Source: Arenibacter sp. F26102 (GTDB taxonomy: Bacteria; Bacteroidota; Bacteroidia; Flavobacteriales; Flavobacteriaceae). From it: 64,000 bases of DNA. Under the pieces are notes generated by a model. It worked only from the letters and a program-made list of their open reading frames with translations. It ran no database searches and had not been told where the DNA came from. Below, piece by piece: positions 51,707 through 62,867 of this stretch; the stretch's first letter is position 1, and every line of letters starts with the position of its first letter. The stretch covers positions 62,001-126,000 of the forward strand of contig NZ_JALKBC010000015.1 of the NCBI RefSeq assembly GCF_023015865.1. The letters run 5' to 3'. The position numbers and the translations under genes are program-made.

Positions 51707-53104
51707 ATGATTACCAACGACAACATCATTGCTTTGGCCACTCCTTCAGGGGCAGGTGCCATAGCCGTTATCCGAATTTCCGGGAAGGATGCCATTGCCT
51801 TGGCCAATTCTTTTTTCAAATCGATTCGAGGAAAAGATTTAAAAAAACAGAAGAGCCATACCATTCATTTGGGACATATTACGGAGAACGATAAGGTGTT
51901 GGATGAAGTACTATTATCTCTATTTAAAGGTCCACATTCCTATACCGGTGAAGATGTTGTGGAAATATCCTGTCATGGTTCTCCCTATATTCAACAGCAA
52001 ATTATTCAACTATTCCTACGAAACGGCTGTCGAATGGCGACTGCAGGGGAATTTACACTACGCGCTTTTTTAAACGGTAAAATGGACCTGAGTCAGGCCG
52101 AAGCTGTGGCCGACCTTATTGCCTCGGATAACGAGGCCAGCCACCAGATAGCCATACAGCAGATGCGGGGTGGATTTAGCAATGAAATAAAAAAATTGAG
52201 GGACCAGCTTCTGAACTTCGCTTCCCTAATGGAATTGGAACTCGACTTTGCAGAGGAGGATGTAGAATTTGCGGACCGAACCCAGTTTAAAATACTACTG
52301 ACCAAGATACAAAGAATCTTAAAACGCTTGATAGATTCATTTGCCGTTGGTAATGTCATCAAGAATGGGATTCCCATTGCCATTGTTGGGGAACCCAATG
52401 TGGGAAAATCTACCTTGCTCAATTCCCTTTTAAATGAGGAACGGGCTATAGTAAGCGAAATTGCAGGAACTACCAGGGATACTATTGAGGACGAGATTGT
52501 AATAGGAGGCATAGGATTTCGGTTTATTGATACCGCAGGTATCCGGGATACCAAAGACGTGGTGGAAAGCATAGGGATAAAAAAGACGTTTGAGAAAATA
52601 GAACAAGCCCAGGTTGTGGTGCTATTGGTAGATGGTTGGCAGATGGCAACCGACGCAGCCAAGCTAAAGTCGAGCATAAGGGAATTGGAAAAAATTAAAA
52701 ACAAATATCCTCACAAACCCTTGGTCGTAATTGCCAATAAGGTGGATATGTTGAATGAGGAACAAATAATAAATCTGCAAGCCCAAATTTCAGAACTGCA
52801 CCTATTATCCGCGAAAACTGGAAAAGGCGTCGAAGCCCTAAAATCACGTTTGTTGGATTTTGTAAATACGGGAGCCTTGCGCAATAGTGAAACCATAGTA
52901 ACCAACACAAGGCATTACAGCTCCCTTATAAAGGCTCTGGAAGAGATAGAGAAGGTACAATTTGGAATGGATGAGGATACGCCTAGCGATCTTCTGGCCA
53001 TAGATGTCCGCGAAGCACTCTACCATTTAGGGGAAATTACAGGACAAGTGACCAATGACGAACTTTTGGGAAATATTTTTGCTAATTTCTGTATCGGAAA
53101 ATAG
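51707..53104 (+). CDS. mnmE: tRNA uridine-5-carboxymethylaminomethyl(34) synthesis GTPase
   Basis: GTPase that with MnmG modifies wobble uridines. An N-terminal folate-binding domain (ALATPSGAGAIAVIRISG, PHSYTGEDVVEISCHGSPYI) is followed by a helical domain with inserted G domain: G1 GEPNVGKSTLLNSLL near residue 228, G2/G3 AGTTRDTIEDE and DTAGIRDTKDVVESIGI, and G4 NKVD. The C-terminal IFANFCIGK holds the formyl-folate-activating cysteine at the very end. The last codons overlap the left attachment site of the mobile element, and the element preserves them, so the gene stays intact. Confidence 0.98.
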   Translation: MITNDNIIALATPSGAGAIAVIRISGKDAIALANSFFKSIRGKDLKKQKSHTIHLGHITENDKVLDEVLLSLFKGPHSYTGEDVVEISCHGSPYIQQQIIQLFLRNGCRMATAGEFTLRAFLNGKMDLSQAEAVADLIASDNEASHQIAIQQMRGGFSNEIKKLRDQLLNFASLMELELDFAEEDVEFADRTQFKILLTKIQRILKRLIDSFAVGNVIKNGIPIAIVGEPNVGKSTLLNSLLNEERAIVSEIAGTTRDTIEDEIVIGGIGFRFIDTAGIRDTKDVVESIGIKKTFEKIEQAQVVVLLVDGWQMATDAAKLKSSIRELEKIKNKYPHKPLVVIANKVDMLNEEQIINLQAQISELHLLSAKTGKGVEALKSRLLDFVNTGALRNSETIVTNTRHYSSLIKALEEIEKVQFGMDEDTPSDLLAIDVREALYHLGEITGQVTNDELLGNIFANFCIGK

Positions 53105-53108
53105 ACAA
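53086..53108 (+). repeat. Left attachment site (attL) at the mnmE 3' end
   Basis: TTTCTGTATCGG, then AAAATAGACAA. It encodes the terminal Phe-Cys-Ile-Gly-Lys-stop of MnmE and is repeated in direct orientation at 62030-62052 with 21 of 23 bases identical. This matches the use of conserved gene ends as recombination targets. Confidence 0.85.
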
Positions 53109-53210
53109 GGGTTTTATTTAATATCATTTGATTGCAAATGGCTGTAAATCAATTACTTGTTGATAACTTTTAGATTTTTGATTTCCCATATTCGTCTTAT
53201 TTTCGTACTT

Positions 53211-53274
53211 TTTTGTATCCCATCTGTACCTCGAAATAAGTTTTTGAGGTCGAGATACAAAATTTGCACCTCAT
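53211..53274. promoter_or_regulatory. Inverted repeats and GTACCTC boxes upstream of the integrase
   Basis: TTTTGTATC (53211-53219) pairs with GATACAAAA (53254-53262), and inside it ACCTC (53228-53232) pairs with GAGGT (53246-53250). TGTACCTCG (53225-53233) and TGCACCTCAT (53265-53274) resemble the two boxes near the right end (61974-61995). Candidate integrase arm sites and/or integrase operator. Confidence 0.5.
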
Positions 53275-54429
53275 ATGAAAATCCATCTCAGAAAGAAAAA
53301 ATTGAAAAGTGGAATGACCAGCCTTTATATAGAGTATTATAAAGGCCATACCACCACACCTGAAGGAAAAAGCAAAATTCTCCGAGATTTTGAATACTTA
53401 GAGCTCTACTTGACCACTGACCCTAAGACCGCTGCTGAAAGGAAAAAGAATCAAGAACAACTTGAATTAGCCGAACAAATCTTGGCCATTAGAAAAGCCG
53501 AAGTGTATCAAGGCAGATACAACATACAGAACGACAATAAGGGTAGACTAAGCTTTATGGATTTTTATGAACAAAAGAAAGAGGAACGCTACCAGACCAA
53601 AGGCAATTATGACAACTGGGATGCCGCCCAAAAGCACATAGAGGCCTATTGTCCGGTCCAGATCACCTTAAATGATGTTGATGTGGATTTCATCAAAGGA
53701 TTTAAAAAATATCTGGATACAGTAGCCGTGACCAAAAGCGAAAAGAAGCTTTCACAAAATACCAAGCACACCTATTTTAATAAATTCAAGGCCTGTCTTA
53801 ATGCAGCTTTCGATGAAGGCTACCTAAAGGAAAACTACATAAAAAAGGTCAAAGGCTTTACCATGGGAGAATCTACTAGGGAATACCTCACATCGGAAGA
53901 GCTCCAAAAATTGGCGGATACCCCATGCAAACTCCCAATCTTAAAACGCGCTTTTCTCTTCTCAGCGCTAACTGGCATACGATGGTCAGACGTCAATAAA
54001 TTAAAATGGTCCGAGGTTCGTGATGAAGGTATTGACAATTCTGGAATTCCCGTTTTCCGAATTGTGTTTCAGCAAAAGAAAACAGACGGAGTGGAATATC
54101 TATATATTTCCCAACAGGCCAGGGAGCTTCTTGGTGAACGGAAAGACCACAAGGAAAGAGTCTTCAAAGGGCTACGTTATAGTGCACATATGAACATGCA
54201 ATTGCTCAGGTGGTGTATGTTTGCTGGGATAAACAAGCATATCACCTTTCATTCAGCCCGGCACACCAATGCCGTTTTACTTTTGGAAAATGGCGCGGAT
54301 ATTTATACCGTTTCCAAACGTCTCGGACATCGTGAAATTAGAACTACTGAGATCTATGCCAAAATCATCGACAAAAAAATGAAGGAAGCAGCATATTTAA
54401 TTCCTAAATTATATATGGATTTTCAATAA
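53275..54429 (+). CDS. Tyrosine site-specific integrase (Bacteroidetes type)
   Basis: A 384-residue integrase. The N-terminal arm-binding-like region (about 1-75) begins MKIHLRKKKLKSGMTSLYIEYY. The SAM-like core-binding domain (about 95-205) has MDFYEQKKEERYQTKGNYDNW and TKHTYFNKFKACLNAAFDEGY. The catalytic domain shows TGIRWSDVNKLKW (Arg near 233), FHSARHTNAVLLLENG (HxxRH near 325), LGHREIRTTEIYAKI (His, then nucleophilic Tyr near 360). All catalytic residues are present. It lies 166 bases inside attL and should catalyse recombination at the mnmE end. Confidence 0.95.
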   Translation: MKIHLRKKKLKSGMTSLYIEYYKGHTTTPEGKSKILRDFEYLELYLTTDPKTAAERKKNQEQLELAEQILAIRKAEVYQGRYNIQNDNKGRLSFMDFYEQKKEERYQTKGNYDNWDAAQKHIEAYCPVQITLNDVDVDFIKGFKKYLDTVAVTKSEKKLSQNTKHTYFNKFKACLNAAFDEGYLKENYIKKVKGFTMGESTREYLTSEELQKLADTPCKLPILKRAFLFSALTGIRWSDVNKLKWSEVRDEGIDNSGIPVFRIVFQQKKTDGVEYLYISQQARELLGERKDHKERVFKGLRYSAHMNMQLLRWCMFAGINKHITFHSARHTNAVLLLENGADIYTVSKRLGHREIRTTEIYAKIIDKKMKEAAYLIPKLYMDFQ

Positions 54430-54695
54430 ACACGTTTCATTTATCTTTCGAAGAATCAAGTGTAATTTAAATTAACTCTTGTAATACTTTAAAAGTTTCT
54501 CGATATAAAATTTTTGAAATATTATTTTTTACTTTTAAACAGCTAGGTTTTAAACAATTTACCATTCGAATTATAGCTCAATTATCTAATCGGCTATTAA
54601 CGTATTATCTAGATTGTAATGAAAGATAATCAAAATTAGGGCAGATAGTTGTAGACATATAATTCATCAGATATTCCTTGTTAAACTGACACTAT

Positions 54696-57218
54696 ATGGA
54701 TGAAAGAATAAAAATATTTTTGCTGACAGTATTACCTTTATTTTTTTTGTCAACTCAAATCCTTGCTCAAAAAAATACACAAATTAATATTTTAACGCAG
54801 AAACTAGACGTTTACGTAAATAATTTAGCGCCCGAAAAAGTATATATACAAACTGATAAAGATTTCTATATCGTTGGTGATACAATCTGGTTTAAGTCTT
54901 ATTTGCTGAATGGCGTGACTCATTATGCAAGTGACAAAAGCAACATTGTCTATGTTGAGTTATTAGACGCAAATGGCGGAACACTGGTAAAAAGAAAACT
55001 TTATACTGACCATGGAAGTGCATTTGGTGACATACAAATTGACGATTCCATCACGGAGGGGGACTATCGCATACGTGCATACACCAGGTACATGCTGAAC
55101 GATGAGGACCTAGTTATATTTGAGAAAAAAATTTCAATTTTGACGCGGCCCATGTCAATCAATGGCAAATATAATAGTGTAGAATTAGTTAATTCAGAAA
55201 AGGAGAAAAGGCAAGAAAGGAATGTTATGAATTCTAAGATGTCAAAGCCGAACGTTCAATTTTTTCCAGAAGGCGGCAATCTAGTAATAGGCCTCCAAAG
55301 CGAGTTGGGCCTAAAAATAACCGACGAATTTGGGAACGGATTAGCCATGAAGGGCCACATTTTTGATCAAAAAGGATATATGATCAAATCCTTTCAAACC
55401 TATAATTCCGGTTTAGGAGTCTTTCCTATTACACCTAAATCCGGTACTAATTATTATGCTGAACTTAATATTGACGGTATTTTGCACAGATACTCCTTAC
55501 CTATAGCATTAGATAAAGGATATGTAATACAACTTAAGAACCAGGGCTCCCAAATAATAATCAAAGTTTCTTCCAATATTGACCAAGGACTCACAGGAAC
55601 GGTGATATTGGGTCATCTCCGAGGAGAAATCTTCCTTAAACATTCAAAAAAAGATAGCAGTAAATCATCATATTTAATTAAGTTTCCTACTTCTGAATTA
55701 TCCGAAGGAATTGCTCATTTCACCTTGTTCAATCAGCAGGGAGAGCCAATTTGCGAACGCCTGACCTTTATCAACAATCCAGAAAACGAGATAGATATTA
55801 CTTTAACAACAGATAAGTCGGATTATAAGTTTCGTGAAAAGGTCGACCTCAAAATGTTTATTGCTGACACCCAAGGAAAACCTTTAAAGGGTGATTTTTC
55901 CATAAGTGTCGCCCTCGATAAAAGCTTTGATAAAAACGATTCCAATATTAAAGATTGGTTTTTGTTAAATTCCGATTTGGGTAATACAGGAGAAAACCCA
56001 AATTTCTTTTTTAGTGAGGATTCCGATTTCCGGAAAAAATTATTGGATATTTTAATGCTAACTCATGAATGGAAAAGATTCGCTTGGAAATCTTTTCCAT
56101 TAAACGAATCTAGTAGAGCGCTAGAATTTCTACCAGAGAAAGGGATTATGATCAATGGAGTAACAAGGGCGTTCGATAATCGTAATCAGCCAATAAAAGC
56201 CCTTACGACATTGAGTGTTTTGGGACAAGATATATATCAAGAAAAAAGGCTGACTGATGCACAAGGGAGATTTAGCTTCGGACCATTGGTCTTTTTAGAT
56301 AGTGTTGAGGCCATTATAAATGCATCCTCTTTTATCCATGGTAAAAACAAAAATGAAAAAATCTCAATTTATTTAGATACCGTAATAGCAAAAGTCAATA
56401 TTGATAATCTGACAGCCAAAGAATCATATAAAAAGACTGTTTCTATTCAAGAGGAACTCATTAAAGATTATAGAGATAAAGTAAGTGGTTTAGAATATTC
56501 TCCTAGGGTTACAGCATTATCGGAAGTTGTAGTAAAAGCAAAGAAAAAAACCAGAAAGGAACGTATTGATGAAGAATTAAATAAAATGACAGTTTATGGC
56601 ACAGCCCAAAATAGATTATTTCCAGATTCGATATCAAGAAGTACATTGCGCAGTGTTTTCGACATTCTAACCCAAGTTCCGGGAGTACAGGTTTTGGGCA
56701 CTTTCCCGAACCAAAGTGTTCGAATTAGAGGAATGAATAGTTTTAGCTCCTCTGGAGACCCACTTTTCTTAAAAGATGGGGTTCCTGTATCCGCCAATTT
56801 CGTACAAAGCACGACATTGAACGATGTGCTGTTTGTGGATATCCTCAAGGGAGGAGAAGCTGCTTTTTATGGGTCTCGTGGTACGAATGGAGTGGTTGCT
56901 ATATACACAGATAGTGGTCAAAGCTTTGAATCTGGGCTAAAAGAGCAGCCTGATGTTGTCAATTTAGTTATTCCTGGATTCTACAATCCAAGAGAATTTT
57001 ATCACCCAAATTATGGAGTCAAAAAACCAAACCATAAAATATCGGATTATCGCACTACATTATATTGGAATCCTGAGGTGATAATTACCGAGGAGACAAC
57101 AACCAAATTAAATTTCTATACTGGTGATGTGCCAGGAAAATTCACCCTTAGACTGGAAGGGGTCACCACTGATGGAAAACTTGTTAGTAAGAATTGTAGC
57201 TTTATTATTCTTAACTAG
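54696..57218 (+). CDS. MG2-domain and TonB-dependent-receptor-plug surface protein (element cargo)
   Basis: An 840-residue exported protein. The signal peptide is about residues 1-24 (FLLTVLPLFFLSTQILAQ). An alpha-2-macroglobulin-type MG2 domain follows (about 30-145; PEKVYIQTDKDFYIVGDTIWFKSYL), further beta-sandwich domains (for example YKFREKVDLKMFIADTQGKPLKGDFSI), a carboxypeptidase-regulatory-like segment near 480-540, and a TonB receptor plug domain (about 610-745; RSVFDILTQVPGVQVLG, VRIRGMNSFSSSGDPLFLKDG, VDILKGGEAAFYGSRGTNGV). There is no beta-barrel: the protein ends soon after with a beta domain, so it cannot be a classical receptor. It is the only obvious cargo of the element and is AT-rich. 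Role unknown, perhaps envelope-associated. Confidence 0.8.
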   Translation: MDERIKIFLLTVLPLFFLSTQILAQKNTQINILTQKLDVYVNNLAPEKVYIQTDKDFYIVGDTIWFKSYLLNGVTHYASDKSNIVYVELLDANGGTLVKRKLYTDHGSAFGDIQIDDSITEGDYRIRAYTRYMLNDEDLVIFEKKISILTRPMSINGKYNSVELVNSEKEKRQERNVMNSKMSKPNVQFFPEGGNLVIGLQSELGLKITDEFGNGLAMKGHIFDQKGYMIKSFQTYNSGLGVFPITPKSGTNYYAELNIDGILHRYSLPIALDKGYVIQLKNQGSQIIIKVSSNIDQGLTGTVILGHLRGEIFLKHSKKDSSKSSYLIKFPTSELSEGIAHFTLFNQQGEPICERLTFINNPENEIDITLTTDKSDYKFREKVDLKMFIADTQGKPLKGDFSISVALDKSFDKNDSNIKDWFLLNSDLGNTGENPNFFFSEDSDFRKKLLDILMLTHEWKRFAWKSFPLNESSRALEFLPEKGIMINGVTRAFDNRNQPIKALTTLSVLGQDIYQEKRLTDAQGRFSFGPLVFLDSVEAIINASSFIHGKNKNEKISIYLDTVIAKVNIDNLTAKESYKKTVSIQEELIKDYRDKVSGLEYSPRVTALSEVVVKAKKKTRKERIDEELNKMTVYGTAQNRLFPDSISRSTLRSVFDILTQVPGVQVLGTFPNQSVRIRGMNSFSSSGDPLFLKDGVPVSANFVQSTTLNDVLFVDILKGGEAAFYGSRGTNGVVAIYTDSGQSFESGLKEQPDVVNLVIPGFYNPREFYHPNYGVKKPNHKISDYRTTLYWNPEVIITEETTTKLNFYTGDVPGKFTLRLEGVTTDGKLVSKNCSFIILN

Positions 57219-57575
57219 GCTTTGTACTCCTAGAGCGGCCACAAGTTAACTTCTTAAATCTTTCGATCATCCTGCTCTAAAGCTTTATCAACTAGATTTT
57301 AGGAAAGTTTTAAAACTAACGCTTTTTGGGCCATTTTATAATAGTATGTCGATTCTTAAAATTCTACATTTATAACAAAATCTGTTGAATCTTATGTTTA
57401 CATAAGTAATTGTTCACCTGATATTATAAATATAGAGCCTTGGCAAAAGTGAATTTAGCAGGGTCAAAAAACTTAAATCCCCCTTTTTGAGATTAAAAAT
57501 GTCTTGATTCCTTCATTTTCATTGTTAATAACTACGAAAATTCAAAGAAATAGTCTTTTGTACAGTGACTTGGAT

Positions 57576-57603
57576 TGACATCATTTGATATCATATGACA
57601 TCA
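57576..57603. repeat. Three 10-bp-phased TGAYATCA boxes
   Basis: TGACATCA (57576-57583), TGATATCA (57586-57593) and TGACATCA (57596-57603) start exactly 10 bases apart. The middle box is itself palindromic (the outer two differ from a palindrome at one pair), so one face of the helix carries three protein sites. Confidence 0.75.
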
Positions 57604-57756
57604 AATAAAATTATAGCGTATTGTCTGCAAAATTAGTTGATGCAATTTGTCGTAATTTACTGTATTACAATTAGTTGTGAATAACTATTATTATTTTTCC
57701 TTTTCTTCGCTTGCCTATTTTTATACATTTATACCCACTGCATAGCTGCAGGAAAA

Positions 57757-57770
57757 CAAAAGCGCTTTTG
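57757..57770. promoter_or_regulatory. Perfect palindrome CAAAAGCGCTTTTG
   Basis: A 14-bp perfect palindrome that ends 28 bases before the ATG of the HTH gene; a plausible autoregulatory operator of that gene. Confidence 0.5.
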
Positions 57771-57798
57771 TTCATTTTCAATCTTAAAATCAAAAAAA

Positions 57799-58083
57799 AT
57801 GGACAAAATTAAATTAGAAGAAAAACTCGATAGAATTGAAAGTCTCTTATTGGGTTCCAAAAAAGTACTAACCATGGAAGAAGCCTGTGACTACACCGGT
57901 ATTTCCAGAAGTTATCTCTATAAATTGACCTCTAGAGGAGAAATTCCCTATAGCAAGCCAAATGGTAAAATGATCTTCTTCGACATTGATAAGCTTAACG
58001 AGTGGCTTCTACAAAACAGTAGAAAGTCACATGATGAAATTGCTAGTGCGGCACTACAATACACATTCAAAAATAGAAGATGA
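57799..58083 (+). CDS. Excisionase-family HTH DNA-binding protein
   Basis: A 94-residue protein with a short N-terminal coiled region (EEKLDRIESLLLGSK) followed by a winged-HTH of the excisionase/MerR-like group (VLTMEEACDYTGISRSYLYKLTSRGEIPYSKPNGKMIFFDIDKLNEWL). In Bacteroidetes elements such proteins sit just before the primase module and serve in excision or regulation. Its stop codon overlaps the start of the VapE-like gene (ATGATG), so they form an operon. Confidence 0.88.
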   Translation: MDKIKLEEKLDRIESLLLGSKKVLTMEEACDYTGISRSYLYKLTSRGEIPYSKPNGKMIFFDIDKLNEWLLQNSRKSHDEIASAALQYTFKNRR

Positions 58084-59291
58084 TGGTTTCAGAATATCGA
58101 AGCGATTCGCTTTACCACGTCAAGGACCCTCAAAAAAAGACAGTATACGACTACACTATGGAATATCTTGAGGCAAAGTACGACATCACGTACAACGAGA
58201 TATCGCACGACTTCCAGATAAGCTTTAATGGTTCCAAAGAATGGCAGTACCTGAATCTTAACTCATTGATCATCGAACTGGCCAAAGCGGGCATAGATAT
58301 TCCGAATGGAAAACTGGAAACCCTCATTCGTTCGGAATGGATTCCCAATTGTAATCCCATTAAGGAATATTTTGAAAATCTTCCGAAATGGGATGGGGAA
58401 GACCATATTCTAAAATTGGCCTCCTATGTGCCGACCTATGAAAATGAGGCTTTTAATTATCATTTCAAGAAATGGCTGGTGCGTACCATAAAGTGCGCTT
58501 TGGAAAAAAATTACTTCAACAAACAGGCCTTTGTTTTATCCCATAAGGGACAGAACTCCGGTAAGTCCACTTGGTGCCGGTTTATCTGTCCGCCAGAACT
58601 GGAAGAGTATATGGCCGAGGATATAAGCAACGACAAGGATGCCAGGATCCAATTATGCCGGAACTTCCTTTACAACCTAGACGAATTGGCCGTTCTTTCC
58701 AAAAAGGATGTCAATGCCCTAAAATCATTTTTCTCAAAGACCTTTATCAATGAGCGTTTGCCTTATGACCGAAAGAATACTACCCTACCTCGTATATGCT
58801 CTTTTATAGGTTCCACCAATATGCCCTCCTTTCTAAATGATGAAACGGGTTCTGTCCGATGGCTGTGCTTTGAGCTCAAGGACAGGATAGATTTTCGGTA
58901 CTCTAAAGAAGTGGATATAAGTAAGGTATGGGCACAAGCCTATCACCTGGCCTACTCAGACACCGATTTCAATCCTGAACTGTCCATCACCGATATCCAA
59001 GAAAACGAGGAACGAAACAAAAAATATACCAAGTTGACCACAGAGGAGGAGCTGGTGTCCAAATACTTTGAAAAGTCCAACGACCTGGACGATTTTGTCA
59101 CTGCATCCGACGTACTGGTCAAGCTGAGCTGCCTTAATCTTCGCCTGAACCAGATTAATTTGGGCAGGGCGCTATCCGGATTCAATTTTCAAAGAATAAA
59201 ACATCCCAAACGGCAGGTTTACGGATATTTGGCCAAACCACTCTTCGTGGGCACCCCTTGGGAAGTGGAACTATCAAAAAACAATGAATAG
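58080..59291 (+). CDS. VapE-domain (virulence-associated E) ATPase
   Basis: A 403-residue protein of the phage/element VapE family, thought to be an SF3-like replicative helicase or primase partner. NPIKEYFENLPKWDGEDHILKLASYV is the family lead-in. Walker A is SHKGQNSGKSTWCRF near residue 157, and a Walker B-like LYNLDELAVLSKKDVNALKSF is near 200. RKNTTLPRICSFIGSTNMPSFLNDETGSVRWLCFEL is the conserved sensor/arginine-finger block. A start at 58083 is equally possible. It probably replicates the excised circle with the downstream primase. Confidence 0.88.
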   Translation: MMVSEYRSDSLYHVKDPQKKTVYDYTMEYLEAKYDITYNEISHDFQISFNGSKEWQYLNLNSLIIELAKAGIDIPNGKLETLIRSEWIPNCNPIKEYFENLPKWDGEDHILKLASYVPTYENEAFNYHFKKWLVRTIKCALEKNYFNKQAFVLSHKGQNSGKSTWCRFICPPELEEYMAEDISNDKDARIQLCRNFLYNLDELAVLSKKDVNALKSFFSKTFINERLPYDRKNTTLPRICSFIGSTNMPSFLNDETGSVRWLCFELKDRIDFRYSKEVDISKVWAQAYHLAYSDTDFNPELSITDIQENEERNKKYTKLTTEEELVSKYFEKSNDLDDFVTASDVLVKLSCLNLRLNQINLGRALSGFNFQRIKHPKRQVYGYLAKPLFVGTPWEVELSKNNE

Positions 59292-59501
59292 CTTCTACCT
59301 ACTTACCTAAAGAACTTTTAGCTCCCAAATGCGGGTGTTTCCTTAAGGTAGGATATATATATACCCTTAATTACCTAGGTATTACCAAACCTACCCAAAG
59401 TGGTAAGATGGGTAAGCTCAAAATAATACCCACCTAAGCCATGAACACCAATAAATAAGGATTTAGGTAAGAAGGTAAGGGTAATTTAAAGAAAAGAGCT
59501 G
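59292..59501. repeat. GGTAAG/TACC-rich repeat region between VapE and primase genes
   Basis: This 210-base spacer is packed with GGTAAG or its complement: TTACC near the left end, TTAAGGTAGG near 59343, TTACCTAGGTATTACC around 59371-59386, GGTAAGATGGGTAAG at 59402-59416, TACCCACC near 59428, and GGTAAGAAGGTAAGGGTAA at 59466-59484. Both orientations occur. It resembles an iteron-like replication origin or primase recognition region. Confidence 0.5.
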
Positions 59502-60365
59502 ATGAAGGAAAAAAGAACCAATAGACTTTCGTGTGAAAGAGCCCGAACTTATCCCATCGAAAAAGCGCTGGCAAAACTCGGGCACTTTCCAACAAAGGAA
59601 TCTAATAAAGAAGCTTGGTTCCTGAGTCCGTTCCGCTCAGAAACCCAAGCCTCTTTCAAAGTATCCAAGAAACTGAACCGTTGGTACGACCACGGTATTG
59701 GGAAAGGGGGAAATGTAATCGATCTGATTTGTCTAATCAACAACTCATCGGTAAAGGAAACCTTGGATTGGCTACAAAACGTTAAGATTTCTTTTTCTTT
59801 TCAGCTGCCACTTTTTAAAGAGGACAATCAAGATAAAATCGAGATAAAGTATTTCAAGGAACTGGCCCATTTTGCGCTAAGGGAATATGTAATGAAAAGA
59901 GGGATTTCCATATTGACTGCCAGAAAACTGTGCAAGGAAGTCCACTATAAATTTCAGGACAAGATGTATTTCGCCCTAGGACTAGCCAACACCTCCGGAG
60001 GTTGGGAATTGCGGAACAAATATTATAAGAATTCCAGCTCCCCAAAAGACGTCACTCACCGCCAGAACGGAAACAGTAGGCTGATCGTTACCGAGGGAAT
60101 GTTCGATATGTTGAGCCTGATGGAACGGGACAAACATCTAATGGAAGTATATGATCTTTTGATATTGAACTCCCTAGGCTTTATAGAAAAAACGTTTAAG
60201 AGGTTTGACGTCTATGAATCGATTATGCTTTATTTGGACAATGACCATGCAGGAAGAAATGCCGTTAAAGTAATGATGCAACAACAGTCAAAATGCATAG
60301 ATAGATCCAGCTTATACGAGAATTTTAAAGATGTGAATGCATGGTGGATTGCTCAAAACCAATGA
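59502..60365 (+). CDS. Toprim-domain primase-like protein
   Basis: A 287-residue protein. The N-terminal ~95 residues resemble the CHC2 primase domain fold (FLSPFRSETQASFKVSKKLNRWYDHGIGKGGNVIDLICL), but the zinc-binding cysteine/histidine set is largely missing. The Toprim domain begins near residue 190: LIVTEGMFDMLSLM with the conserved glutamate and IMLYLDNDHAGRNAVKVM with the DxD near 243. Such proteins are standard in Bacteroidetes mobilizable elements and probably prime replication with VapE. Confidence 0.88.
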   Translation: MKEKRTNRLSCERARTYPIEKALAKLGHFPTKESNKEAWFLSPFRSETQASFKVSKKLNRWYDHGIGKGGNVIDLICLINNSSVKETLDWLQNVKISFSFQLPLFKEDNQDKIEIKYFKELAHFALREYVMKRGISILTARKLCKEVHYKFQDKMYFALGLANTSGGWELRNKYYKNSSSPKDVTHRQNGNSRLIVTEGMFDMLSLMERDKHLMEVYDLLILNSLGFIEKTFKRFDVYESIMLYLDNDHAGRNAVKVMMQQQSKCIDRSSLYENFKDVNAWWIAQNQ

Positions 60366-60610
60366 ACCGAATTGGTAGTTATTCATGATGAGTCTTAGTT
60401 GACACAAAGCTAATTCGAACACCAAAGTGTGAGAAATTAGGAATAGCAAGAGGGTAACGGGCAAAGCCACGTTACGTATTTATTTTGGCACTCAAAACAA
60501 TGATTATCAGTCATTTATAAATATATCAATTTTTCGGATTTTACCAATTTGCGTCAAATGCCCTGTAAACCCCCATGTTTAGGGAATAATTTGCGTCAAA
60601 ACATAAAATT
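60366..60610. promoter_or_regulatory. Intergenic region with inverted and direct repeats before the mobilization gene (oriT/operator candidate)
   Basis: GTAACG and CGTTAC form a small hairpin around 60453-60474. AATTTGCGTCAAA occurs twice in direct orientation (60546-60558 and 60588-60600), 42 bases apart start to start. Between the copies CCCTGTAAAC and GTTTAGGG make an inverted repeat. This kind of repeat-hairpin arrangement upstream of a mobilization gene fits an origin of transfer or an autoregulatory operator. Confidence 0.5.
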
Positions 60611-60946
60611 ATGGACTCTTTTAAATGCATTCGTTTTAAGAGGGCAACCGTCAAACGTTTCCAGAAATTCTCATCCACCCATTTTAAATCCCATACGGAA
60701 GCCATGGCTACTATGCTCGACTTTTTTTACAATAACGAAATCTCCCCTAAAGAAATATATGGCCCCACCGGAAGAACCATTGAACAAACATTAACAAAAC
60801 GGATTAATGCTTTTATCGCCATCCTGAGGAATATTGAAAAGACACAAACTAAGCCCACCGTGGAGATGTTAACTTCCTTATTCGAAATGGAAGAGCCCAA
60901 AAAGAAGCGATTAATCCTGGAGAAGAAAAGGTTTAAGGAGAGCTAA
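60611..60946 (+). CDS. BfmA/BtgA-like mobilization accessory protein
   Basis: A 111-residue basic protein: FKCIRFKRATVKRFQKFSSTHFKSHTEAMATMLDFFYNNEISPKE at the N-terminus reads as a ribbon-helix-helix-like domain. NAFIAILRNIEKTQTKPTVEMLTSLFEME follows in the C-terminal half. This matches the BfmA/BtgA family that binds oriT and assists a separate relaxase. In most such elements the relaxase gene follows directly; here the next 200 bases are non-coding and lead to a toxin-antitoxin pair. Confidence 0.78.
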   Translation: MDSFKCIRFKRATVKRFQKFSSTHFKSHTEAMATMLDFFYNNEISPKEIYGPTGRTIEQTLTKRINAFIAILRNIEKTQTKPTVEMLTSLFEMEEPKKKRLILEKKRFKES

Positions 60947-60960
60947 TCAAACTTTCATGA

Positions 60961-61032
60961 GCGCAAATAAAAAGGTGCGCCCTATCCGATTTTTGCTATA
61001 CGCTTATCTGCCCGAATACTACAAAAATCGGA
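60961..61032. repeat. Inverted repeats downstream of the mobilization gene
   Basis: TCCGATTTTTG (60985-60995) and CAAAAATCGGA (61022-61032) form a perfect 11-bp inverted repeat with a 26-base loop. Just upstream GCGC...GCGC bounds a 20-base block (60961-60980), and GCGCAAA recurs at 61043. The long loop argues against a simple terminator. Confidence 0.55.
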
Positions 61033-61089
61033 CAGGAACCATGCGCAAAGTTCTTGGGTAAGATTTGGGGGGTTAAGATAGGTAATAAC

Positions 61090-61116
61090 ATTTATTGGAA
61101 ATAAATATCCATAAAT
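61090..61116. promoter_or_regulatory. Candidate HigA operator
   Basis: ATTTATTGGA (61090-61099) and TCCATAAAT (61108-61116) form an imperfect inverted repeat about 45 bases upstream of the higB start, beside a promoter-like TATCTTTA. The position suits autoregulation by HigA. Confidence 0.45.
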
Positions 61117-61161
61117 GTAATTTATATAGTATCTTTACGTTTAAATTGAAAATTATATCAA

Positions 61162-61458
61162 GTGCATGTTATTTCATTTAAAAAACTAAGAGAGTATTTT
61201 TCAAAAGAAACTAATGCTAAAGTAGCACTGCAAGATTGGTATAAAAAGACAAACAAGGCTGAATGGGATAGTTTTGCCGATTTAAAGAACACGTTCAATT
61301 CAGCTGATAGCGTGGGAAACGGGAGGTTCGTTTTTAACGTCAAGGGAAACCATTACCGAGTTGTTGCCATCGTACGATTTAAGTTCAAGATGGTATTGAT
61401 ACGGTGGGTTGGCAATCACCGGGATTACGACAAAATAAAGAATATAGATAAGCTATAA
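61162..61458 (+). CDS. higB: HigB-family toxin (mRNA interferase)
   Basis: A 98-residue HigB-type toxin (PF09907): HVISFKKLREYFSKETNAKVALQDWYKKTNKAEWDSFADLKNTF at the N-terminus and FKMVLIRWVGNHRDYDKIK at the C-terminus, the usual family ending. It starts at GTG 61162; homologues begin with this residue pattern. It precedes its antitoxin by four bases, the toxin-first order typical of higBA. Likely degrades translated mRNA when free. Confidence 0.92.
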   Translation: MHVISFKKLREYFSKETNAKVALQDWYKKTNKAEWDSFADLKNTFNSADSVGNGRFVFNVKGNHYRVVAIVRFKFKMVLIRWVGNHRDYDKIKNIDKL

Positions 61459-61462
61459 AGAA

Positions 61463-61825
61463 ATGGGAAAATTAATTGCACACGAAGCATATGTAAAAGC
61501 AAATCTTCGCTTAGAAGAGTTGATAGACGTTGTGGATGATACTATGTCAGCTGATAACCCTTTGGCAAAAGAGTTTTTGGAGATTACTGATATTATCGAA
61601 CAATACGAAGAAATCCATTTCCCCATCGGCTTGCCTACCTTACAGGAAATGATCGAACTACGTATGTTTGAAATGGGACTTAAAAGAAAGGATTTAGCAA
61701 CTCTCTTAGATACAAGCGCCTCCAGAATAAGTGACTACTTAAACGGGAAAAGAGAGATTACTTTGAACGTTGCAAAAGCCTTACATCAAAAATTAAATAT
61801 TGATAGTGATATAATACTTCAATAG
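61463..61825 (+). CDS. higA: HigA-family antitoxin with XRE helix-turn-helix
   Basis: A 120-residue antitoxin. The N-terminal half is acidic and would bind HigB. The C-terminal HTH is MGLKRKDLATLLDTSASRISDYLNGKREITLNVAKALHQKL. It closes the element about 200 bases before attR, where it can stabilise the element in the chromosome. Confidence 0.92.
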   Translation: MGKLIAHEAYVKANLRLEELIDVVDDTMSADNPLAKEFLEITDIIEQYEEIHFPIGLPTLQEMIELRMFEMGLKRKDLATLLDTSASRISDYLNGKREITLNVAKALHQKLNIDSDIILQ

Positions 61826-61840
61826 TTGCCAATTGTATTG

Positions 61841-61872
61841 CATGAGCCGATTACGACATTTAATCGGCTCAT
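61841..61872 (+). terminator. Hairpin terminator after higBA
   Basis: ATGAGCCGATTA and TAATCGGCTCAT form a 12-bp perfect stem around CGACATT, 16 bases past the higA stop. There is no good T-run, so termination strength is uncertain. Confidence 0.6.
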
Positions 61873-61973
61873 ATGGCATTATTCTATATATTTATTACTT
61901 AATCTTCTGATTTCCATAAGACCTTAAAAATAAGGCGAGTATGACTTTTAGTTGATATCGAAAAATGTAGTTT

Positions 61974-61995
61974 TGTACCTCATGTGTACCTCGAA
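61974..61995. promoter_or_regulatory. Tandem TGTACCTC boxes near attR (integrase arm-site candidates)
   Basis: TGTACCTCAT (61974-61983) and TGTACCTCGAA (61985-61995) repeat with an 11-base period, 35-56 bases inside attR. The same core occurs near attL at 53225-53233 and, with one change, at 53265-53274. Confidence 0.5.
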
Positions 61996-62029
61996 GCTTG
62001 GGAACCCCTGTAAAATATGGGTTCGTTAC

Positions 62030-62052
62030 TTTCTGTATCGGGAAATAGATAA
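62030..62052 (+). repeat. Right attachment site (attR)
   Basis: A direct copy of the mnmE end: TTTCTGTATCGGGAAATAGA followed by TAA. It differs from attL at two positions, one a synonymous Gly codon change (GGA/GGG) and one just after the stop codon. Confidence 0.85.
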
Positions 62053-62285
62053 ACCATCTCCTATTTCTGCTAAGTATTACTGGAGGAACCGAATAAATGC
62101 CCTAATATTTGAGTTGCCATAAGGATTATCAGGTGTTCCTAGGTTTGATTCCAAGCTACAAAAAGTAATTTTCTTATTTTGAATAAGTCTTGAGAATTCC
62201 TCCGCTGGCGATTACCTGTGACTAATGCCCCACAATAGTAGGCCAAAGGCTTTGAAGTTTACAACTTTAAAGCCCAACATATTTT

Positions 62286-62867
62286 TTATCCGTGTATTGT
62301 TTCTTCTTTTCCGTAGTTTTTTATCACTTCAGCTTCAAATTCAACAAGCTCTTGCCAGCGTTTGTCTACATCTATATTTTGGCCGTATTTGCGAGCAAAG
62401 CCAATAAAAGTGGTATAATGGCCTGCTTCACTAATCATTAGATCGTGGTAGAATTTAGAAAGTTCCGGGTCCTTTATTTCTTTTGAAAGTAGTTTAAAAC
62501 GTTCACAACTTCTCGCTTCGATCATAGCGGAAAACAAGAGTCTATCCACCATCGAATTAAGTCTACTGCCACCTTTGTTCATAAACTTATAAAGCTCGTT
62601 TACATAGCTGTCTTTGCGCTCTCTGCCCAAGGTGTAACCGCGCTTTTTAATGATATCATGTACCATTTGAAAATGTTCTAATTCTTCTTGGGCCAAAAGG
62701 AGTAAATCGGTTACTAAATCGGGGTATTCAGAATTAAGTGTAATAATAGTAATCGCATTGGTAGCGGCCTTTTGTTCACACCATGCATGGTCTGTTAGTA
62801 TCTCTTCTATGTTTTTTTCAACAATATTCACCCAACGTGGGTCTGTTGCAAGTTTTAAATGGAGCAT
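62286..62867 (-). CDS. miaE: tRNA-(ms2io6A)-hydroxylase, MiaE-type
   Basis: A 193-residue ferritin-like di-iron monooxygenase that hydroxylates the isopentenyl group at tRNA A37. Iron ligands fit: the Glu/His of LAQEELEHFQMVH near residue 80, EARSCERF near 125, and SEAGHYTTF near 160, plus DHAWCEQKAATNAI near 30. The start MLHLKLATDPRWVNIVEKN is normal. It was probably the original neighbour of mnmE, another tRNA-modification gene, before the element inserted. Confidence 0.93.
   Translation of the reverse strand: MLHLKLATDPRWVNIVEKNIEEILTDHAWCEQKAATNAITIITLNSEYPDLVTDLLLLAQEELEHFQMVHDIIKKRGYTLGRERKDSYVNELYKFMNKGGSRLNSMVDRLLFSAMIEARSCERFKLLSKEIKDPELSKFYHDLMISEAGHYTTFIGFARKYGQNIDVDKRWQELVEFEAEVIKNYGKEETIHG

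What the first reader, a model, noticed from the sequence alone, without database searches (positions are those of the whole stretch)
53086..62052. Mobile element inserted precisely at the mnmE stop codon, target end duplicated
The last codons of mnmE (Phe-Cys-Ile-Gly-Lys-stop) are repeated in direct orientation about 8.95 kb downstream, 21 of 23 bases identical, and a tyrosine integrase gene starts 166 bases inside the left copy. Established knowledge: Salmonella genomic island 1 and relatives also use the conserved 3' end of mnmE (trmE/thdF), so a Bacteroidetes-type integrase would have converged on the same target. The target encodes the catalytic C-terminal Cys motif, which cannot drift.
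Basis: partly seen in the sequence, partly recalled or inferred. Interest (0 to 1): 0.75.

Follow-up and report, generated by a model that had tools for sequence, protein, structure and literature searches.

The report
Mobile DNA island family at mnmE
A stretch of mobile DNA sits exactly at the end of a housekeeping gene in a marine bacterium, placed there by an enzyme of a widespread family that mostly aims at that same gene end and that also includes the enzyme of a well-known Salmonella resistance island.

Summary
A 23-bp repeat (21/23 identical) bounds an 8.9-kb element starting inside the last codons of mnmE; 100 shuffles of the window give no match. It carries an open tyrosine integrase, excisionase-like, VapE-like and primase-like genes, a BfmA-type mobilization gene and HigBA; no relaxase was found. 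Same-genus genomes give single-copy mnmE ends (G302, G309) and a clean insertion (G306), which place strand exchange in or next to the Cys-Ile-Gly codons, so the element supplies mnmE's final Lys codon and stop. The integrase family is site-faithful: of 55 near-relative loci in public genomes, 52 follow mnmE, and mnmE-linked members occur in eight Bacteroidota family codes. Two corrections. (1) Convergence with SGI1 is unlikely: the SGI1 integrase, identified by four published primers, is 41% identical over 99% of the length, has the same core domains and groups with this clade. (2) miaE is probably not the original right neighbour; the window's attR abuts another block in an Arenibacter hotspot that includes an integrase-free polysaccharide-utilization island between att cores. 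My searches of an open-access library found no paper on mnmE islands in Bacteroidota.

The parts
51707..53104 (+). mnmE (target gene); its last codons FCIGK-stop are the attachment site
   Evidence: Pfam MnmE_helical 2.5e-53, TrmE_N 2.3e-43
53086..53108 (+). attL, left copy of the 23-bp repeat at the mnmE stop; the Lys codon and stop are inferred to come from the element
   Evidence: compared with G302/G305/G309 mnmE ends and the G306 insertion
53211..53235 (+). candidate integrase arm-type repeat near the left end (matches 61971-61995, 88%)
   Evidence: family D8; TGTACCTCGAA shared by both ends
53275..54429 (+). tyrosine integrase, 384 aa, open frame; HxxR, H and Tyr boxes seen in alignment to solved recombinases
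   Evidence: Pfam Arm-DNA-bind_5, Phage_int_SAM_5, Phage_integrase; alignment to IntI4/XerA
54696..57218 (+). cargo: 840-aa MG2 plus TonB-plug protein
   Evidence: Pfam MG2 5.5e-10, Plug 2.1e-12
57799..58083 (+). excisionase-like helix-turn-helix protein (candidate recombination directionality factor)
   Evidence: TIGR01764 excise 1.4e-11, HTH_17, phrog_66 3.7e-09
58080..59291 (+). VapE-like protein
   Evidence: PF05272 2.1e-33
59502..60365 (+). primase-like protein (zinc ribbon plus Toprim)
   Evidence: PF13155, PF01807
60611..60946 (+). BfmA/BtgA-family mobilization accessory protein; no relaxase gene found beside it
   Evidence: NF041200 2.3e-24; no MbpA/MbpB remnant by tblastn, lowest E 0.53
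61162..61458 (+). HigB-type toxin of a toxin-antitoxin pair
   Evidence: PF09907 1e-29
61463..61825 (+). HigA-type antitoxin
   Evidence: HTH_3 1.3e-10; TIGR02607 3e-05, under its cut-off
61971..61995 (+). candidate integrase arm-type repeat near the right end
   Evidence: family D8; TGTACCTC also near the right ends of G303, G305, G306, G310 and G313 cores
62030..62052 (+). attR, right copy of the repeat
   Evidence: right end shared closely with G306 and G313, weakly with G303
62053..62285 (.). right flank; not the terminator flank seen after mnmE in relatives. The same flank follows att-like cores in G302 and G303
62286..62867 (-). miaE-like gene, accessory copy beyond the element
   Evidence: PF06175 1.5e-44; close copy in 9 of 18 genus genomes

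Best explanation
This is an integrated mobile element of 8.9 kb, most likely a relaxase-less derivative of an integrative mobilizable element. Its integrase recombines the circular element (attP) with the last codons of mnmE (attB). Strand exchange falls in or right beside TGTATCGG (Cys-Ile-Gly), so mnmE keeps its 5' part and receives the final Lys codon and stop from the element; the protein is unchanged and the original downstream sequence is pushed away. The integrase belongs to a site-faithful family spread over Bacteroidota, of which SGI1's integrase is a member or close sister. In Arenibacter the site has collected several att-bounded blocks, at least one without an integrase, and the window element lies at the mnmE-proximal end of such an array. 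Shown here by sequence comparison: boundaries, single-copy sites, family linkage, SGI1 homology. Inferred: excision, arm-site use, mobilization in trans, the ancestral right flank, direction of transfer between phyla.
For: Repeat and gene content. mnmE ends without element in G302 and G309 (and G305, with a caveat below) and an insertion in G306 whose attR is followed by the same terminator. Near relatives: 52 of 55 loci after mnmE, 2 more with an att core only, 1 with neither; 9 of the 64 loci returned were dropped as partial or 32% identical. Family survey: 73 of 299 genomes positive, 58 of the 73 at mnmE. A further att core lies downstream on the same strand within 55 kb in 22 of 30 genomes, my count. 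Tree of 115 integrases: 88 rows labelled mnmE (by an upstream mnmE hit or an att core) need 9 changes against 24.2 when shuffled; a clade of 56 with SH-aLRT 100 has 55 so labelled. Horizontal movement: Yeosuana integrase 82.7% with mnmE 74.8%, against 83.6% with mnmE 96.1% in Arenibacter L015. SGI1 identity by four primers at 0 mismatches, 40.9% identity over 99%, PF13102 and PF00589 shared, PF17293 just under its cut-off, one group with the Bacteroidota clade at 97/97.
Against: No excised circle or transfer was observed. Integrase and mnmE identities still correlate (r 0.61 over 51 loci) and the Arenibacter rows group together (support 93), so movement between genera is not constant. G+C of the element (0.369) is close to the left flank (0.380), so composition gives no sign of foreign origin. 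The window element lacks a relaxase, so its own transferability is doubtful. In 13 of 73 family genomes the integrase is not beside mnmE on the assembled contigs (at least G185 sits at a contig end) and 2 had no mnmE hit. The mnmE label needs 8 to 9 changes on the trees, so the target has switched. G305 has a second core 21.9 kb downstream, so its mnmE end may not be empty. The right flank of mnmE varies much within the genus.
Confidence: 0.87

Rival explanations
1. One reading: a Bacteroidota integrase converged independently on the same target as SGI1, and miaE is the natural right neighbour of mnmE.
For: The two integrases are only 41% identical and live in different phyla; the SGI1 row has a long branch when it stands alone. 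The AU test does not firmly reject the Bacteroidota rows as a clade apart from the gammaproteobacterial rows (p 0.0487 with SGI1 alone; 0.0764 with two rows). The target label has changed several times on the tree.
Against: Homology over 99% of the length with the same SAM and catalytic domains. The best listed relatives of SGI1 Int in the plasmid and phage collections, apart from itself, are Bacteroidota or unassigned gut contigs; other phyla follow at about 25-28%. Both gammaproteobacterial members and 42 of the 44 Bacteroidota rows grouped with them are at or labelled mnmE, so one shared origin of the target is simpler. The mnmE-terminator ends of G302, G305 and G309 speak against miaE as the original neighbour.
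Confidence: 0.08
2. The block is a degraded, immobile remnant: the integrase is a fossil and the repeat only records an old insertion.
For: No relaxase found; sibling G212 has an integrase with an internal stop, and G311 seems to keep only an integrase tail after mnmE (my reading).
Against: The window integrase is open over its full length with the motifs that could be aligned, both att cores keep 21 of 23 bases, excisionase-like and replication-like genes are open, and the right end is nearly identical to that of G306 and G313.
Confidence: 0.2
3. It is a prophage or phage satellite rather than a conjugation-dependent element.
For: VapE plus primase genes also occur in phage satellites (recalled); five of the eight window-element proteins match phage integration, excision, replication or regulation families.
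Against: None of the eight window-element proteins matches a structural or packaging family in Pfam or PHROGs. The sibling element of G306 carries MbpA and a relaxase-domain protein. A viral-contig scan with the one protein, which reaches close relatives only, confirmed none. Of five listed phage-collection hits above 40%, four were fetched: short unverified contigs, three of which (L259, L260, L262) hold bacterial mnmE.
Confidence: 0.07

Closest known systems
SGI1 and SGI1-related elements (Salmonella, Proteus, Vibrio)
   Same: Same target, the last 18 bp of trmE/mnmE; homologous integrase with the same SAM and catalytic Pfam domains; strand exchange estimated in the same part of the core (PMC2297512 section 6 read); tandem arrays and a secondary site are reported for SGI1.
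   Different: Integrase only 41% identical; the SGI1 rep, tra, activator and mps genes named in the papers were not recognised among the window element's proteins; host phylum and cargo differ.
Bacteroidota mobilizable elements of the NBU / Mbp type
   Same: Module order integrase, HTH excisionase, VapE-like ATPase, Toprim primase, mobilization genes; the G306 sibling carries an MbpA and an MbpB-like relaxase gene, the latter under the NCBIfam cut-off but with Pfam Relaxase. A Bacteroides finegoldii record shows a like order: integrase, HTH, HTH, AAA ATPase, Toprim.
   Different: NBU1 targets a tRNA-Leu gene (PMC5704250, passages seen); the B. finegoldii integrase lies downstream of dnaK; the window element lacks the relaxase. 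NBU1 itself was not compared by sequence.
dusA-associated integrase family (Proteobacteria)
   Same: A tyrosine integrase family devoted to one tRNA-modification gene, with diverse islands (PMC4482086, outline with abstract plus passages).
   Different: Targets the 5' end of dusA; a section heading places these integrases in three proteobacterial lineages; not compared by sequence here.
Riemerella anatipestifer 10K island and Chryseobacterium ICECleSHZ29
   Same: Integrase-driven islands in Flavobacteriales with direct repeats.
   Different: Targets are tRNA genes: Arg, and Met or Glu (passages seen).

Membership tests
Tyrosine recombinase (integrase) family | Catalytic domain with R, H-x-x-R, H/W and Tyr residues | tested here: met
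   PF00589 1.6e-18; HSAR, LGH and IY boxes aligned to solved recombinases; the first Arg (TGIRWSDV) was read from sequence only
mnmE 3'-end integrase clade (defined here) | Integrase in the supported clade and located right after mnmE with a core TGYATHGGNAARTAR | tested here: met
Integrative and mobilizable element (IME) | Own integrase with att sites | tested here: met
Integrative and mobilizable element (IME) | Own relaxase (canonical IME) | tested here: not met
   No relaxase among the window element's proteins and no MbpA/MbpB remnant; the G306 sibling has one
Integrative and mobilizable element (IME) | No complete conjugation machinery of its own | tested here: met
   No transfer-apparatus family among the eight proteins scanned
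Integrative and mobilizable element (IME) | Excision and mobilization by a helper | not testable with these tools
   needs a culture
SGI1-related elements | Integration at the 3' end of trmE/mnmE | tested here: met
SGI1-related elements | Integrase inside the SGI1-RE clusters of PMC9035990 (the most distant, intAGI1, is given as at most 64.82% nt identity to the others; passage) | tested here: not met
   40.9% amino-acid identity to SGI1 Int; other SGI1-RE integrases were not compared
SGI1-related elements | Syntenic backbone (xis, rep, traNGH, activators, mpsAB) | tested here: not met
   Pfam and NCBIfam content of the window element shows none except an excisionase-like HTH
Prophage | Structural and packaging genes | tested here: not met
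   none among eight proteins in Pfam or PHROGs

The most novel reading that the evidence does not exclude
One old integrase lineage centred in Bacteroidota has kept the Cys-Ile-Gly-Lys-stop end of mnmE as its address across phyla. It gave SGI1-type resistance islands their integrase, and in marine Bacteroidota the same address works as a shared docking site where integrase-less polysaccharide-utilization islands with matching att cores and arm-like ends are moved in trans.
Probability: 0.42. Interest if true: 0.78.

Novelty: new variant of a known kind. Interest (0 to 1): 0.6.

Why it matters
It turns a single insertion into a phylum-wide system: a protein-gene address, fixed by the C-terminal motif of MnmE, used by many different islands in Bacteroidota. 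It gives a testable origin for the integrase of SGI1, a known carrier of drug resistance, and it offers a concrete route by which whole polysaccharide-utilization loci may move between marine bacteria. Because the target is so conserved, the site can be searched in any genome with a short pattern.

Tried and rejected
Empty mnmE-miaE junction as the natural attB: G299 looked like it (111 bp), but its right half resembles the left end of an integrase-less island type and lacks the flank seen in the window, so it is at best a scar or another junction. G305 as a clean empty site: it has a second core 21.9 kb downstream, so it is kept only with a caveat. Close integrase relatives in viral contigs: none confirmed. 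G+C content: no contrast. Remnants of MbpA, MbpB or the accessory gene in the window element: none, lowest tblastn E 0.53. Gammaproteobacterial genomes around an E. coli centre: not possible. SGI1 integrase in complete E. coli genomes: 0 of 5426 cover at least 80% of the query by megablast; by sensitive blastn 1 of 5426, a divergent relative in strain 1585m1, also at mnmE. AU tests on the place of SGI1 are borderline, so direction of transfer is left open. Position 12 of the core could not be assigned to host or element in every pair. Rows left out of trees: five named rows, rows under 270 aa or with stops, and near-copies at 95% (137 to 115), 13 long-branch or distant rows and near-copies at 82%, L197 as well.
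Full report
Observation. One hundred shuffled windows give no match, and the rest of the 5.44-Mb genome has only a three-mismatch copy on another contig. The left copy is the end of mnmE. The integrase start codon lies 166 bp further on.

Anatomy. Between the copies lie an open 384-aa tyrosine integrase frame (arm, SAM and catalytic domains), an 840-aa MG2/TonB-plug protein, an excisionase-like HTH protein, a VapE-like protein, a zinc-ribbon/Toprim primase-like protein, a BfmA/BtgA-type mobilization accessory protein and a HigBA-like pair. No relaxase was found, and the MbpA/MbpB genes of a sibling element left no trace. None of the eight proteins matches a phage structural family. A second pair of repeats near both ends, sharing TGTACCTCGAA, is a candidate for integrase arm sites. 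G+C does not differ from the flank.

Single-copy and filled sites in the genus. The genus search covered 18 genomes, all with mnmE. In G302, G305 and G309 mnmE ends TGTATCGG[A/G]AAGTAA and runs into a terminator-like hairpin (CCCAGTAAAT.CTGGG). A pattern for that hairpin occurs in 4 of 18 genomes, the fourth being G306. In G306 an integrase-bearing island of 16.9 kb begins with TGTATCGGGAAATAGACA and ends with TTTCTGTATCGGAAAGTAACAATACAAAA, followed by that hairpin. So the element supplies AAA-TAG at the mnmE end and the host's AAG-TAA moves to the right end. If G306's own empty site was like that of G302 and G305, exchange lies between the third base of the Phe codon and the wobble of Gly, inside TGTATCGG; the Lys wobble limits it to TGTATCGGNAA at most. 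For SGI1 the 2008 paper places exchange upstream of position 9 at the primary site, and between bases 3-5 and 5-11 of the 18-bp core at the secondary site (PMC2297512 section 6 read). Caveats: G305 has a further core 21.9 kb downstream, so it may not be empty, and only 4 of 18 genomes show the hairpin, so calling it ancestral is my inference.

Right flank. The window's attR is followed by a 233-bp spacer and miaE, not by that hairpin. A close copy of this miaE (85% or more) is present in 9 of 18 genus genomes. The same spacer follows att-like cores in G302 and G303, where the DNA on the left is of another kind. G299 has mnmE and miaE 111 bp apart with one core, but its spacer starts like the left end of an integrase-less island type. 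In G310 a 13.8-kb block lies between two exact mnmE-type cores; its nine frames match gluconate dehydrogenase subunit 3, GMC oxidoreductase, two sulfatases, two SusD, a TonB receptor, FecR and a sigma factor, and none matches an integrase. In G305 a core of the same right-end type lies after a comparable stretch. One junction in G302, with one mismatch in the core, joins the right end of one such island to the left end of another, as in a tandem array. Beyond the window, degenerate cores (3 mismatches) with the same left-end sequence lie at about window coordinates 80,902 and 102,812. I read the site as an accretion hotspot, with the window element next to mnmE.

Family and target fidelity. 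A public-genome scan gave 64 loci. Dropping 9 that were partial or about 32% identical leaves 55; in 52 the integrase follows mnmE (145-230 bp in 49, 852-956 bp in 3), in 2 only an att core precedes it, and in 1 (Leeuwenhoekiella, L023) neither. In 299 genomes of the family, 73 have the integrase at E 1e-30 or better; 58 of 73 have it after mnmE within 1.5 kb (30 of 30 fetched loci, and 28 of the other 43), 13 do not on the assembled contigs, and 2 had no mnmE hit. Phylum-wide, 41 of 395 genomes are positive at E 1e-45, with mnmE-linked members in seven further family codes (f2, f3, f8, f11, f12, f18, f24). A further core on the same strand within 55 kb downstream is present in 22 of 30 genomes (my count), giving putative islands of 8.9 to 54 kb; whole genomes held 0 to 3 matches per strand to the reversed control pattern. 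On a tree of 115 integrases the mnmE label (88 rows; upstream mnmE hit or att core within 1.3 kb) changes 9 times against 24.2 when shuffled, and a clade of 56 with SH-aLRT 100 holds 55 so labelled. Other rows, among them a group after dnaK and a 46% group in five family genomes, use other sites, so the target is not immutable. The integrase of Arenibacter L015 is 83.6% identical with mnmE 96.1%, whereas Yeosuana has integrase 82.7% with mnmE 74.8%, which points to horizontal movement; over 51 loci the two identities still correlate (r 0.61), and Arenibacter rows group together.

SGI1. Two contigs filed as phages (OR845421, OR850969) hold an enterobacterial mnmE end followed by a 405-aa integrase and a small HTH gene on the other strand. 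Four published SGI1 left-end primers match both contigs with no mismatch; the two right-end primers do not match, as expected for a left-end fragment, and the mnmE primer has 2 mismatches (primers from PMC2297512 Table 1; match). This integrase is 40.9% identical to the window's over 99% of its length, with PF13102 and PF00589 and a PF17293 match just under its cut-off. Its best listed relatives in the plasmid and phage collections, apart from itself, are Bacteroidota or unassigned gut contigs (top 60 of 125 and top 40 of 188 records seen). A second gammaproteobacterial member, in E. coli 1585m1, also follows mnmE. Both form one group with 44 Bacteroidota rows, 42 of them labelled mnmE, at 97/97 support and nest inside it at 98/95; the AU test does not exclude a sister position (p 0.0764; p 0.0487 with SGI1 alone). 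Shared ancestry of the target choice is therefore the simpler reading; the direction of transfer is open, because only two gammaproteobacterial rows could be sampled.

Literature. Seven searches with mnmE, trmE or thdF, integrase, SGI1, Bacteroidetes or Flavobacteri terms named mnmE islands only from gammaproteobacteria in the listings I saw; three of the seven returned nothing. Papers seen as passages, outline or single sections: PMC2297512, PMC4482086, PMC5704250, PMC9035990, PMC8409611, PMC6764341, PMC12561888, PMC6491836, PMC6414798, PMC9299015, PMC5006074. The library is open-access only, and large island databases such as TIGER/Islander may list some of these islands without comment (PMC12424338, search listing only).

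Verdict. A real, precise insertion, ordinary in mechanism, but part of a phylum-wide family, apparently undescribed in what I could search, that includes or adjoins SGI1's integrase and sits at a rich docking site.

Noticed in passing
G310 contig C5, 188588-202407 (locus L150, 589-14408): A 13.8-kb polysaccharide-utilization block lies between two mnmE-type att cores without any integrase among its nine frames; a candidate island moved in trans.
   Followed up: partly
L251 (also L253 and L255): Islands of about 28-37 kb at mnmE in other Flavobacteriaceae genera carry what look like heavy-metal efflux genes (my reading of the translations) and a 703-aa protein with a Piwi domain (prokaryotic Argonaute); Piwi was tested by Pfam in L251 only.
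   Followed up: partly
L261 (Bacteroides finegoldii plasmid record NZ_OY725932): A sister integrase lies downstream of dnaK, with one small hypothetical gene between, so related integrases may use other conserved protein genes.
   Followed up: no
L260 and L262 (OR845421, OR850969): Contigs filed as Escherichia and Salmonella phages are bacterial DNA from the left end of SGI1.
   Followed up: yes
L023, upstream of the integrase: In Leeuwenhoekiella blandensis a close relative of the integrase sits after another gene end with only GGGAAATAG of the core, a possible secondary site.
   Followed up: no
G306 island (locus L153, reverse strand): Sibling island carries an AbiEii toxin gene with a DUF6088 partner, besides MbpA and an MbpB-like relaxase gene, so these islands may also carry defence genes.
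   Followed up: partly
L108 and L070: G311 seems to keep only an integrase tail right after mnmE and G212 has an integrase with an internal stop: signs of decay at the site.
   Followed up: no
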